DNA of 64,000 nt from Streptococcaceae bacterium AF54-32pH5A (GTDB lineage Bacteria; Bacillota; Bacilli; Lactobacillales; Streptococcaceae), in the NCBI GenBank assembly GCA_027682205.1, contig JAQDAD010000001.1:620001-684000 (forward strand), in the 5' to 3' direction. The stretch's first letter is position 1. The number at the start of each line of letters is the position of its first letter. Of the stretch, positions 37,542 to 48,238 are shown one piece after another. A program made the translations under genes and the position numbers. Under the pieces are notes generated by a model that did not search any database, was not told where the DNA came from, and was given only the letters and a program-made list of their open reading frames with translations.

Positions 37542-37641
37542 AGTATACACCTTGTGAAAATCGCTTTCAATATCTTGTATACACTTAGATTTTAGTTTCT
37601 ACTTGTATTTTAGAAACTGTAACGATTGAAAGTAGTTTCAG
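37542..37641 (-). promoter_or_regulatory. Lyase-nanK promoter with cre-like site and proposed NanR operator
   Basis: On the minus strand TTGAAA (37565-37570) and TATACT (37542-37547) are 17 bases apart. The -35 opens a cre-like TTGAAAGCGATTTTCA. Upstream are element A (37586-37599, TAGATTTTAGTTTC on the + strand) and element B (37626-37641, TTGAAAGTAGTTTCAG). The spacing is identical to that at nanE and the sialidase gene. Confidence 0.75.
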
Positions 37642-37653
37642 AAACAAACCATC

Positions 37654-38298
37654 CTACTGGTATTTGGCGAAAATTTTCTCCATCAAACCTGCTTGGAGAA
37701 AGACTAGCAAACCAAAACCAAAGAGGATAAAGGCTGACCCACCCAAAAGGAGAGTGAAGGCGGATAGATAAAGAACCATCACAATAAGAAAGAGAATGGC
37801 TAACATGAGGAAGAACCATGGAAAGTTAAAACTTGCCAAGATAAGCCCTTTTTGCAGCACTTCTTTCCAAGACAAATCATAGCGCGCAGCGATGGGATAA
37901 CTAGCCAGCATCACCAGAGTGAGGAAGATGAGAATCCCCAAACAAATAGCTTTCACAATCTGGAAAGGCAAAGTTGTCTGTCCCCAGAAGAGATAGAGAT
38001 CTAGAAAGCTTAATGACACAATGCCCAACTCTAACAGACCCAACTGAAGCCCCAGTTTCAGATTTTGCTTGAAGGCCCTTATATAAGTTCTAAAGACTGG
38101 TACCCGTCTGCTTCTCTTAATCTCGAACATAGTCTCATAGAGGCTGATTTTCGCCACTCCAATCGTCACGATGGGCAAACAAGAGACGACAAAAAGAAGA
38201 TTGGCTGTCACGATATCCAAGACCTTCTCACTGAAACGCATGAGAAAATTATCTGTATCAAATGCTGCCTTGATCAGGCTTACTCCTTTTTGTGCCAT
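37654..38298 (-). CDS. YesL-like DUF624 membrane protein
   Basis: A 214-residue protein with about five hydrophobic segments. The family start (TANLLFVVSCLPIVTIGVAKISLYETMFEI) is clear. Such proteins are common in carbohydrate ABC transporter operons of Firmicutes, but their function is not known. It is the last gene of the nanE-sat-yhcH unit, 20 bases after yhcH. Confidence 0.85.
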   Translation of the reverse strand: MAQKGVSLIKAAFDTDNFLMRFSEKVLDIVTANLLFVVSCLPIVTIGVAKISLYETMFEIKRSRRVPVFRTYIRAFKQNLKLGLQLGLLELGIVSLSFLDLYLFWGQTTLPFQIVKAICLGILIFLTLVMLASYPIAARYDLSWKEVLQKGLILASFNFPWFFLMLAILFLIVMVLYLSAFTLLLGGSAFILFGFGLLVFLQAGLMEKIFAKYQ

Positions 38299-38318
38299 GT
38301 TTGCTCCTCCTGATTTTT

Positions 38319-38771
38319 TTAATCAATCAAAATTTTAAAGAGATATTTGCGAACCTTCTCTTCCATACCTGCATAGCCATTTGGCTGGTGTGGTTCTCCT
38401 GGGAAGAAAATCGCAAAATTGTGATAGCCCAACAATAGTGGGTATTTTTCATGACAATGAACAAAACCAATGTCACTCGCTTCGTCGAATGCTACTGCCT
38501 CGTCTTTGATACGTGAACCGTAGCTAGAATATTCATGTCCTTCTACCAGCAAATGCAAATCTGCATAGTTCTTATGGTGTTCAAATTGATCATTTTCAGC
38601 TTGATTGAGGACATTTTCCTGAACAACTAGAAAGACCTTGTCCCCGTCAATCTCATACTTACCTAGTTCGAAAGAATCCTTACGGTGCTGATAGAGATAG
38701 TCGATAGCCTTATCTAGATTGGGATGAACCCCTTTGTAAAAGGCGATGTTTTTCAAATCGTCAAAAATCAT
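38319..38771 (-). CDS. YhcH/YjgK/YiaL-family protein, possible sialic acid anomerase
   Basis: A 150-residue beta-barrel protein of the DUF386 family. Conserved features are EHHKNYADLHLLVEG, with the metal-site His and Asp, and FAIFFPGEPHQPNGY. E. coli YhcH/NanM-linked members have been connected with sialic acid anomers in nan operons. The position downstream of the Sat transporter supports that role here, but the reaction is inferred. Confidence 0.87.
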   Translation of the reverse strand: MIFDDLKNIAFYKGVHPNLDKAIDYLYQHRKDSFELGKYEIDGDKVFLVVQENVLNQAENDQFEHHKNYADLHLLVEGHEYSSYGSRIKDEAVAFDEASDIGFVHCHEKYPLLLGYHNFAIFFPGEPHQPNGYAGMEEKVRKYLFKILID

Positions 38772-38817
38772 ACTGTTTCCTTCGTTTCTGATAGTTAACT
38801 AAAATCATAGATTAAGT

Positions 38818-38880
38818 TTATAAGTGTCTGACAAAATCTCTAAGGTAAGTAAATACCCAACATTTTGTAGACACTTATAA
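38818..38880. repeat. 63-bp inverted repeat, MITE-like hairpin
   Basis: The left arm TTATAAGTGTCTGACAAAAT pairs with 38862-38880 apart from one bulged base, enclosing a 24-base centre. It lies between satC and yhcH just beside a BOX element. It could terminate or process the nanE-sat transcript or be a small mobile repeat. Confidence 0.6.
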
Positions 38881-38894
38881 CTCTGTATTCTCTT

Positions 38895-39000
38895 ATACTC
38901 AATGAAAATGGAAGAATGGACTAGGAAGCTAACCGCAAGCAATACTTAAGTATGGCAAGGTGACGCTGACGTAGTTTGAATTCGATTTTCGCAGAGTATT
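38895..39000. repeat. BOX element (boxA-boxC type) at the satC stop codon
   Basis: It begins ATACTCAATGAAAAT, continues ACTAGGAAGCTAACCGC, and ends with AAGGTGACGCTGACG followed by a TTCGCAGAGTAT end, the known BOX pattern without boxB. Its right end provides part of the satC TAA stop codon. Confidence 0.88.
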
Positions 39001-46685: not shown

Positions 46686-46876
46686 TTTTTTACCTTCCAT
46701 ATTCTTCATAAATAAAGCGCTTTCTTTTTTTCTTAAAATTTTTAGTTCCTCCAACTAAACAAGGAAAAAGAAAGTAACCGACTGAATGAGATCTCCCATT
46801 CTTCAAACGTCCACTGCTCTTACTCTCTGACCAAACAGCGGAAAGTTTCCTCCTTTCGCATAATACCTTTCCCTCA

Positions 46877-46976
46877 TTATACAATAAACTTTGAACTTTA
46901 TAGCTAAATTGATATAGAATAGATTTTACTTTCAAGAATAATTTAATATTTTAAATTTACAAAAAGTACTTTCAGG
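46877..46976 (-). promoter_or_regulatory. Sialidase promoter with proposed NanR operator and long leader
   Basis: TATAAT (46877-46882) has only GCTATA at the -35 position, so activation is likely needed. Element A (46921-46934, TAGATTTTACTTTC) and element B (46961-46976, CAAAAAGTACTTTCAG) sit at the same distances as at nanE and the lyase gene. The leader is about 185 nt and contains the cre-like AAAGCGCTTT core at 46714-46723. Confidence 0.7.
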
Positions 46977-47018
46977 GATTTCGATATAAAAAAGAGAGCT
47001 AGTGCCCTCTCAAAGTTA

Positions 47019-47999
47019 TTATTTTACATAGGAAAAAGAAATCTCACTGCCGCAGAGCCAGTTGTAGACTTGGTCATTGACAAAGACATTCATGGCTTCG
47101 TGGGCATACTCAGGCATGATACGATAGGCCTTATCGCAAGTTAGACGATTATAAATCGCGAACTGGGTAATGGGATAGCAAACATCGTCATCCAAGCCCG
47201 TTATCATCTTGACCTCTCCTTTGATACGATGGGCAAGATTCTTCACATCGATATAGGCAAGAGTCGCCATGATTTCCTCCTCTGTTTCATGGAAGGGATC
47301 GTGGAACTTGAAATAACGGAAGAGTTCATCATAGGCTTCACTGGTATTGCCAATCTCAAGCACTCGTCTGAAATCTGACAAGAAGGGATAGATGGCAACT
47401 GTTCGCTGAATCCGAGGATTGAGCGCTGCTGCAACCAGGGCTAAAGCCCCTCCTTGTGAAGCACCATAGCTAGAAAGTCGCTTCTCATCCACCTGTGGCA
47501 GACTAGCAACAATTTCGATCAACTGGTAAATATCCAGATAGACATCCTTATAAAAGAGCTGGTCTCGACCTTCAACAGCACCACGGATAATATGTCCCTT
47601 AACTGTATTTCCTAGTGGAGAGCGCAAGCCATCTTGCGAATAACCCGACTGGCCTCGAACGTCCATGGAAACAACACCGTAACCAGCCACGGTATAGGCC
47701 AGCATGTCAGCCCAATCCCAACCACGTCCCATGTACCCATGGAAATGGAAGATTAGCGGAACTTTCTCCTCGGTCTTTGGAAGGACGACGCGTGCATAGA
47801 CCTCGCCTTCATTCCTTCCCTCAAAGGTTAGCTCATAGCACTTGACTTGGGGAATGTGGAAATCTCTCTCCTCCAACTGGTAGGCCGGAAGTGTTGAAAC
47901 TTTTTTTACTTCCTCATCCCAGAAAGCGTCAAAGTCTACTGGGACCTCATCCCTTCCTTTATAAGTCTTGATTTCTTCTAACAAAGCTGGATTTTTCAT
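47019..47999 (-). CDS. Acetyl esterase, CE7 family (acetyl xylan esterase / cephalosporin C deacetylase type)
   Basis: A 326-residue alpha/beta hydrolase. The nucleophile motif GASQGG gives Ser near 185, the catalytic Asp is probably in MITGLDDDVCYP, and the His in PEYAHEAM. The oxyanion region FHGYMGRGWDW is typical of CE7. AGGAG lies seven bases before the ATG; a longer frame upstream lacks a ribosome site. Next to NanA and with a NanR-type operator upstream, it may remove O-acetyl groups from sialic acids or their degradation products. There is no signal peptide, so it acts in the cytoplasm. Function is inferred. Confidence 0.87.
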   Translation of the reverse strand: MKNPALLEEIKTYKGRDEVPVDFDAFWDEEVKKVSTLPAYQLEERDFHIPQVKCYELTFEGRNEGEVYARVVLPKTEEKVPLIFHFHGYMGRGWDWADMLAYTVAGYGVVSMDVRGQSGYSQDGLRSPLGNTVKGHIIRGAVEGRDQLFYKDVYLDIYQLIEIVASLPQVDEKRLSSYGASQGGALALVAAALNPRIQRTVAIYPFLSDFRRVLEIGNTSEAYDELFRYFKFHDPFHETEEEIMATLAYIDVKNLAHRIKGEVKMITGLDDDVCYPITQFAIYNRLTCDKAYRIMPEYAHEAMNVFVNDQVYNWLCGSEISFSYVK

Positions 48000-48074
48000 A
48001 GCATGCTCCTTTTGTTTTGTAATCGCTATCATAACTGTAGCATATCTGGGAAAGCAATGCAAGAAAGAAGGGTA

Positions 48075-48179
48075 ATACTCTTCGAAAATCAAATTCAAAC
48101 CATGTCAGCTTCGCCTTGCCGTACTCAAGTACAGCCTGCGGCTAGCTTCCTAGTTTGCTCTTTGATTTTCATTGAGTAT
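48075..48179. repeat. BOX element upstream of the acetyl esterase
   Basis: A 105-bp BOX without boxB, in the opposite orientation to that at 38895-39000. It starts ATACTCTTCGAAAATC, has CTAGCTTCCTAGTTTGC, and ends TTTCATTGAGTAT. It lies between the esterase promoter and the operator copy at 48183-48238. Confidence 0.9.
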
Positions 48180-48182
48180 AAA

Positions 48183-48238
48183 TAGATAGAGATTTTAAAT
48201 TCTCCTCCCTCAAACCTATCGTCTGAAAGTAGTTTTAA
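48183..48238 (-). promoter_or_regulatory. Proposed NanR operator displaced by the BOX
   Basis: Element B is CTGAAAGTAGTTTTAA (48223-48238, 14 of 16 to the nanE copy). A weaker element A (TAGAT...TTT, 48183-48196) starts exactly 40 bases from it. Without the BOX, A would be 39 bases from a TTGCAT-N17-TACAGT promoter ending at 48039. Confidence 0.5.

What the first reader, a model, noticed from the sequence alone, without database searches (positions are those of the whole stretch)
37542..48238. A two-part operator with fixed spacing recurs upstream of four sialic acid genes
Upstream of nanE, the lyase gene and sialidase nanA I find the same layout. The -10 boxes (43114-43119, 37542-37547, 46877-46882) are followed 39 bases upstream by element A, TAGATTTYANTTTC (43158, 37586, 46921). 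Element B, CTGAAA-N4-TTTCAG (43198, 37626, 46961), begins exactly 40 bases from the start of A in all three. A fourth A/B pair with the same 40-base offset lies at 48183/48223 before the acetyl esterase. Identical spacing (39 and 40, about four helical turns) in sequences that otherwise differ argues for a regulator bound on one face. NanR, the RpiR activator encoded at 33373-34224, is the obvious candidate: A is centred near -60 and B near -100, where an activator would sit. The sialidase promoter has no -35 and would be the most dependent. The spacing is seen in sequence; NanR binding is inference.
Basis: partly seen in the sequence, partly recalled or inferred. Interest (0 to 1): 0.8.

Follow-up and report, generated by a model that had tools for sequence, protein, structure and literature searches.

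The report
Paired NanR switches before sialic genes
The sialic-acid genes of this mouth streptococcus each carry a strong and a weak docking site for the same switch protein at a nearly fixed distance, which suggests that the sugar signal turns the genes on by letting the protein bridge both sites.

Summary
The layout is real at three promoters: B and A pair 40 bp apart, 52 bp before the -10; 200 shuffles of the window gave no pair. B is the published 18-bp NanR site, and a December 2025 preprint (PMC12713135) already noticed the start of A as a 'degenerate half palindrome' at nanE and the sialidase, so the core is known. New here: (1) A looks like a full-length degenerate NanR operator, not a half-site. 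Its far half is as conserved as its near half, and the base pair matching NanR's essential Arg56 contact is kept in 57 of 57 distinct A elements chosen by the near half alone. (2) The geometry B-40/41-A-50/52-(-10) recurs across many streptococci. (3) A is present at the lyase promoter, where the preprint says the half-site is absent; and a B-A pair precedes operon II in 5 of 7 genomes searched, where the preprint saw no functional site. Best model: ManNAc-6-P-stabilised NanR tetramer bridges strong B to weak A near -58. Binding to A is untested.

The parts
43197..43214 (-). B at nanE: 18-bp NanR site TCTGAAACTACTTTCAGG
   Evidence: matches the published consensus TCTGAAACTACTTTCAAA (PMC12713135)
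43158..43171 (-). A at nanE: weak second NanR operator (GAAACTGAAATCTA), 40 bp from B
   Evidence: conservation
43137..43142 (-). -35 TTGAAA of nanE, start of a cre-like box
43114..43119 (-). -10 TATAAT of nanE
37625..37642 (-). B at the N-acetylneuraminate lyase gene
37586..37599 (-). A at the lyase gene (GAAACTAAAATCTA), 40 bp from B
   Evidence: conserved in relatives
37565..37570 (-). -35 TTGAAA of the lyase promoter, start of a cre-like box
37542..37547 (-). -10 TATACT of the lyase promoter
46959..46976 (-). B at the sialidase gene (imperfect: CTGAAAGTACTTTTTG core)
46920..46933 (-). A at the sialidase gene (GAAAGTAAAATCTA), 40 bp from B
46876..46881 (-). -10 TATAAT of the sialidase promoter; no -35 at 17 bp
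48222..48239 (-). B-like site before the acetyl esterase gene (TAAAACTACTTTCA core)
48183..48196 (-). A slot before the esterase, at +40: decayed mirror-type operator
48075..48180 (.). about 106 bp inserted between the A slot and the esterase -35/-10; ends are inverted repeats (RUP-like, name recalled)
   Evidence: B-to-esterase distance 239 in window against 133 in uninterrupted relatives such as L003, L007, L008
48057..48062 (-). -35 TTGCAT of the esterase
   Evidence: same element in relatives
48034..48039 (-). extended -10 (TGC)TACAGT of the esterase
   Evidence: same element in relatives
33373..34224 (+). nanR, RpiR-family activator

Best explanation
Each of these promoters carries two operators for NanR: a strong one (B, centre about -98) and, 40 or 41 bp nearer the gene, a weak one (A, centre about -58, the place of a class I activator). 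A is not a half-site but a full 12-bp core (GAAAnTnnnnnC) whose near half is good and whose far half is degraded yet keeps the base pair that NanR's Arg56 needs. NanR dimers hold B whether or not sugar is present. ManNAc-6-phosphate, made from sialic acid, locks two dimers into a tetramer; only a tetramer already held at B can also occupy the weak A, on nearly the same DNA face, next to RNA polymerase (alpha-CTD), and this recruits polymerase. Weakness of A is what would make the output depend on tetramer formation rather than on DNA affinity. Shown: B is a NanR site and NanR is an activator whose tetramer is effector-stabilised (published); the pairing, spacing and conservation (this work). 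Inferred: NanR occupancy of A, bridging, polymerase contact.
For: B is bound by SpNanR at 483-752 nM at three sites and the effector changes oligomeric state but not affinity (PMC12713135). A matrix built from B sites only (66 sites, no A information) scores the +40/41 slot far above other offsets in all four promoter classes: mean -4.0, -9.2, -1.1 and -1.9 bits against -30 to -31 elsewhere (sd 6-9); it is the top offset for the sialidase and esterase classes and ties with the cre box for nanE. Choosing the offset by the near half alone, far-half position 12 is C in 24/24 nanE, 15/15 lyase and 18/18 sialidase distinct A elements, where C is 9-18% of the spacer (2 of 59 distinct rows were dropped because the near half had more than 1 mismatch). 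Far half as conserved as near half: 1.84, 2.00, 1.74 against 1.86, 1.84, 1.70 bits; spacer 0.50-0.86. Spacing: 31 allowed gaps and 2 allowed gaps both give 113 of 284 genomes; the one per-genome difference I saw is G107. B-A 40/41 and A to -10 50-52 in 58 distinct nanE, lyase and sialidase promoters. Esterase promoters keep a mirror-type A at the same slot. All 15 additional nanE promoters fetched from other lineages have a pair at 40/41 with A within 2 mismatches of the patterns. NanR residues T18, S50, T55, R56, Y66, R67 (DNA) and S135, R148, D160, W164, S179, S181, T184 (effector, tetramer) are invariant in 74 of 74 NanRs that passed a length filter.
Against: No binding data for A exist in anything I read. 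The preprint reports that loss of the central TpA abolishes binding of the isolated site, and A at nanE often lacks TpA (TpG in the window). For the lyase class the B matrix ranks the cre box (+70 to +72) above A, and by single rows +40 is best in 4 of 17 nanE and 0 of 16 lyase promoters. The esterase form of A loses the essential G instead. One lyase promoter (L039; likely also G107) has offset 32. 40 bp is 3.8 turns at 10.5 bp, so the faces are close, not identical.
Confidence: 0.72

Rival explanations
1. Half-site model of the preprint: only the near half of A (TGAAAnT) matters; one DNA-binding domain of the tetramer touches it, and only nanE and the sialidase have it.
For: Proposed by Wood et al. 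(PMC12713135); near half is the part most like B.
Against: Far half is equally conserved; A is also at the lyase in pneumococcal-type genomes (G141, G159, G160, G161) and near operon II; in the esterase class it is the other half that is kept.
Confidence: 0.15
2. A is a promoter element read by RNA polymerase itself (UP element or alpha-CTD site), unrelated to NanR.
For: A lies just upstream of the -35, is A+T-rich and keeps a fixed distance to the -10 (50-52).
Against: The invariant G and C 11 bp apart match the NanR contacts and no UP element rule that I know; a B-only matrix finds A; the distance to B is equally fixed.
Confidence: 0.08
3. A is a degenerate cre box for CcpA.
For: cre boxes also read TGAAA...C with the same span, and true cre-like boxes overlap the -35 at nanE and lyase.
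Against: The central CG of cre (consensus recalled) is absent: the base at its C position is T in 24/24, 15/15 and 18/18 distinct A elements.
Confidence: 0.03
4. Chance or shared descent: the layout was copied with the promoters.
For: All promoters could be old duplicates of one.
Against: Spacers are 8-13 of 27 identical between promoters and poorly conserved within classes while A and B are kept; 0 pairs in 200 shuffles; reversed-pattern control 0 in the tables.
Confidence: 0.02

Closest known systems
Pneumococcal NanR (SpNanR) recognition sequence and activation model, Wood et al. 2025 preprint (PMC12713135), after Afzal et al. 2015 (not held; known to me from the preprint and recall)
   Same: Same regulator, same 18-bp B site, same neighbourhood for the near half of A ('half palindrome ~23 bp downstream') at nanE and the sialidase, same idea of an effector-stabilised tetramer.
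   Different: Here A is a full-length degenerate operator; it is also at the lyase gene (preprint: absent), a pair stands upstream of operon II (preprint: a divergent, probably nonfunctional site), and the esterase ('cryptic' site) has a mirror form. Spacing to B and to the -10 is shown to be fixed across many species.
Escherichia coli MurR and Vibrio vulnificus NanR (RpiR repressors with two adjacent sites; as described in the preprint)
   Same: RpiR tetramer or dimers on two neighbouring operators.
   Different: Those repress over the promoter and release DNA with effector; here the sites lie upstream and the protein activates. Spacing differs (MurR sites 17 bp apart).
Class I activation (CRP at about -61.5; recalled)
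   Same: An activator site centred near -60, beside the alpha-CTD.
   Different: The proximal site is weak and depends on a distal strong site 40/41 bp away.

Membership tests
NanR recognition sites (SpNanR) | 18-bp near-palindrome around GAAANTACTTTC | tested here: met
   B at nanE and lyase 0 mismatches, sialidase 2 mismatches to TGAAANTACTTTCA
NanR recognition sites (SpNanR) | G at position 4 and its symmetric partner (C15), contacted by Arg56 | tested here: met
   Position 12 of the core is C in 57/57 distinct A elements; position 1 is G in 22/24, 15/15, 15/18. Not met in the mirror form at the esterase
NanR recognition sites (SpNanR) | central TpA step | tested here: inconclusive
   B: yes. 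A: A at core position 7 in 13/24 nanE, 15/15 lyase, 14/18 sialidase
NanR recognition sites (SpNanR) | NanR binds it | not testable with these tools
   Published for B sites; unknown for A
NanR of the SpNanR type | DNA-contact, ManNAc-6-P and dimer-dimer residues | tested here: met
   All 18 listed residues identical in the window; 74-sequence alignment: T18, S50, T55, R56, Y66, R67, S135, R148, D160, W164, S179, L180, S181, T184 invariant; K59 61/74, L20 56/74, A52 72/74, Y229 64/74
Two-site RpiR promoters | second operator at fixed spacing | tested here: met
   40/41 bp, one exception at 32
cre box (CcpA) | central CG (recalled) | tested here: not met
   T at that place in 57/57 A elements
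UP element | A-tract consensus bound by alpha-CTD | tested here: inconclusive
   Position fits; no formal match was run

The most novel reading that the evidence does not exclude
Streptococcal NanR promoters are oligomerisation-gated: the effector never changes DNA affinity; a proximal operator kept weak by selection, at a rigid 40/41-bp spacing, converts tetramer formation into occupancy next to RNA polymerase. This tandem operator defines the whole NanR regulon (nanE, lyase, sialidases, operon II and originally the esterase), and would be the first such activator logic described for the RpiR family.
Probability: 0.5. Interest if true: 0.65.

Novelty: new variant of a known kind. Interest (0 to 1): 0.5.

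Why it matters
The preprint left open how an effector that does not change DNA affinity can activate, and what controls operon II. A conserved weak second operator answers the first in a directly testable way, and an overlooked B-A pair about 0.7 kb upstream of operon II offers NanR as its regulator, in line with the 52-fold induction of SPG1598 on ManNAc reported by Gualdi et al. (PMC3509027, passages seen). It also gives a specific search pattern for NanR targets in streptococci.

Tried and rejected
Rfam scan of 33000-51000 found nothing at gathering threshold, so no RNA element explains the leaders. A as a cre box, as chance, and as a copy of a duplicated promoter were considered and rejected (see rivals). 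Before counting I dropped: the esterase row L042, which is a nanE promoter, and L021; 10 of 41 sialidase rows whose 5' end was not aligned; 18 of 78 lyase promoters in which B and A were not both within 3 mismatches. In one search, 1 nanE, 1 lyase and 4 esterase distinct promoters had no acceptable A near 40/41, and the esterase -10 assignment is ambiguous (51 in 12, 57 in 8, 44 in 2 of 22). The relaxed pattern has some background: 161 of 284 genomes match, but the reversed control also matches once in each of 28 genomes (my count of the table). Matches that do not fit: reverse-facing hits beside the lyase B site, running into the membrane-protein gene upstream; and single hits such as G159:C1:1364415, probably chance. 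Literature: listings; no other paper in those listings describes a second NanR site, within this library only.
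Full report
What the window is. The window holds a sialic-acid (nan) cluster of a mitis-group Streptococcus: NanE is 100% identical to that of S. oralis loci L001-L003. Genes of the cluster lie on the minus strand, nanR (33373-34224) on the plus strand. 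The window's own assembly is not held; the nearest genome shares 25% of sampled words.

Checking the observation. Exact A elements occur only at the three stated promoters and B elements pair with them at exactly 40 bp; A to -10 is 52 bp, first base to first base, in all three. A alone is at chance frequency when two mismatches are allowed (10 against 8.05 expected), so the evidence is the pairing: 3 pairs, all at offset 40, against 0 in 200 shuffles at any gap 0-120. The sialidase coordinates are off by one.

B is known. B is the 18-bp recognition sequence of pneumococcal NanR, shown by microscale thermophoresis, ultracentrifugation and a crystal structure in Wood et al. (PMC12713135; I read the abstract, parts 1-3 of the full text, the discussion, part of the structure section and of the legends, and passages). 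They report that ManNAc-6-P drives a dimer-to-tetramer shift without changing DNA affinity, and propose that the tetramer also touches a degenerate half palindrome about 23 bp downstream at nanE and the sialidase. That half palindrome is the beginning of A. They state that it is absent at the lyase promoter, and that operon II has only a divergent site, downstream of its promoter. They also list a 'cryptic' site by the sialidase operon, which I take to be the esterase site.

A is a full, degenerate NanR operator. Four tests. (a) A weight matrix trained on 66 B sites only, without A, scores the slot 40/41 bp downstream of B at mean -4.0 (nanE), -9.2 (lyase), -1.1 (sialidase) and -1.9 (esterase) bits, against -30 to -31 for other offsets; it is the top offset for sialidase and esterase, ties with the cre box at +71 for nanE, and ranks fourth behind +70 to +72 (the cre box) for the lyase. 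(b) Column information in dereplicated sets: near half 1.86/1.84/1.70, far half 1.84/2.00/1.74, B-A spacer 0.50/0.65/0.86 bits for nanE/lyase/sialidase. (c) With the offset chosen from the near half only, core position 12 is C in 57 of 57 distinct A elements (24 nanE, 15 lyase, 18 sialidase; 2 of 59 rows dropped for a poor near half), against 9-18% C in the spacers. That C pairs with the G that Arg56 contacts on the other strand; in the preprint mutating G4 or Arg56 abolishes binding. (d) Other lineages vary the far half freely but keep this C: GAAATTAGAACC, GAAATTAAAACC, GAAATTGCAACC, GAAACTATAATC, GAAACTATTATC, GAAACTAGGTTC, and GATTGTAAAATC where the near half is the degraded one. In the esterase class the degradation is mirrored: forms such as AAAATCACTTTC keep the far half and lose the G. 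A half-site would not predict any of this.

Geometry across the genus. Allowing 31 gap lengths (13-43) or only two (28, 29) gives the same tally, 113 of 284 Streptococcus genomes; comparing the per-genome tables the one difference that I saw is G107 (2 against 1), and the reversed-pattern control columns read 0. A relaxed A raises this to 161 of 284, with single control matches in 28 genomes. In distinct promoters B-A is 40 (16) or 41 (8) for nanE, 40 (10) or 41 (3) for the lyase, 40 (20) or 41 (1) for the sialidase; A to -10 is 51 or 52 for nanE, 52 for the lyase, 52 in 18 of 21 sialidases, with 50 or 51 in the rest. One lyase promoter has lost 8-9 bp (offset 32). Sialidase promoters of the mitis group lack a -35 (0 of 21) while the pneumococcal-type one has TTGAAA.

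The lyase promoter of four pneumococcal-type genomes (G141, G159, G160, G161) carries A (GAAACTAAAATC) at 40 or 41. Operon II has a perfect B, A (GAAACTAAATTC) at 40/41, -35 TTGAAA and -10 TATACT, 660-777 bp upstream of its first gene in those four; the same pair is in 5 of the 7 genomes searched (G095, G141, G159, G160, G161), not in G105 and G168. The long distance to the gene may be why it was missed. Gualdi et al. found operon II gene SPG1598 52-fold up on ManNAc (PMC3509027; abstract and passages), which fits NanR control; the preprint cites another study in which operon II did not respond to sialic acid. I could not check strain D39 itself. A second sialidase gene far from the nan cluster also has the pair (L114).

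The regulator. In 74 NanR sequences that passed a length filter (from 107 loci searched, some overlapping) the DNA-contact residues T18, S50, T55, R56, Y66 and R67 and the effector/tetramer residues S135, R148, D160, W164, S179, L180, S181 and T184 are invariant. The machinery for tetramer bridging is thus present wherever the sites were found.

Mechanism proposed. Strong B at about -98 holds NanR constantly. A at about -58 is too weak for a lone dimer. ManNAc-6-P locks dimers into tetramers; the tetramer held at B reaches A, 40/41 bp (about 136-140 A) away, within the 160-178 A span reported for the protein. NanR at A then contacts polymerase. This explains how an effector that leaves affinity unchanged can switch transcription. 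Only the sequence part is shown here; occupancy of A is inference.

The esterase promoter. In uninterrupted relatives B' and A' stand before TTGCAT-17-extended -10 with the same geometry (51 to the extended -10 in 12 of 22). In this window about 106 bp of inserted DNA with inverted-repeat ends (48075-48180) separate A' from the -35, and A' is decayed, so NanR control of the esterase is probably lost or weakened here.

Verdict. Ordinary at its core (NanR sites, known), with a real refinement: a tandem strong/weak operator with nearly rigid geometry at every NanR promoter class that I examined, correcting two statements of the most recent study. New variant of a known kind.

Noticed in passing
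window 48075-48180: About 106 bp of inserted DNA with inverted-repeat ends (RUP-like, name recalled) splits the esterase promoter; also in L002, L004, L006 and L019 by the distance of about 239-285 bp.
   Followed up: partly
L112:3007-3120 (G160): Overlooked NanR promoter about 0.7 kb upstream of pneumococcal operon II, with a long leader that carries repeat-like sequence.
   Followed up: yes
L114:4640 (G110): B-A pair before a second sialidase-like gene (59% identical to the window's NanA) some 455 kb from the nan cluster.
   Followed up: partly
G159:C1:1080798-1081418 (L164): nanR is interrupted in this genome although all its B-A pairs are intact.
   Followed up: no
L039 and G107:C55:22773-22816: Lyase promoter with an 8-9 bp deletion between B and A (offset 32): a natural test of the spacing.
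   Followed up: no
L116:16438-17262 (G104): A second copy of nanE with its own B-A promoter heads an operon II-like cluster.
   Followed up: no
window 34521-35285: A methyltransferase-like ORF sits between nanR and nanK (function guessed from sequence, not searched).
   Followed up: no
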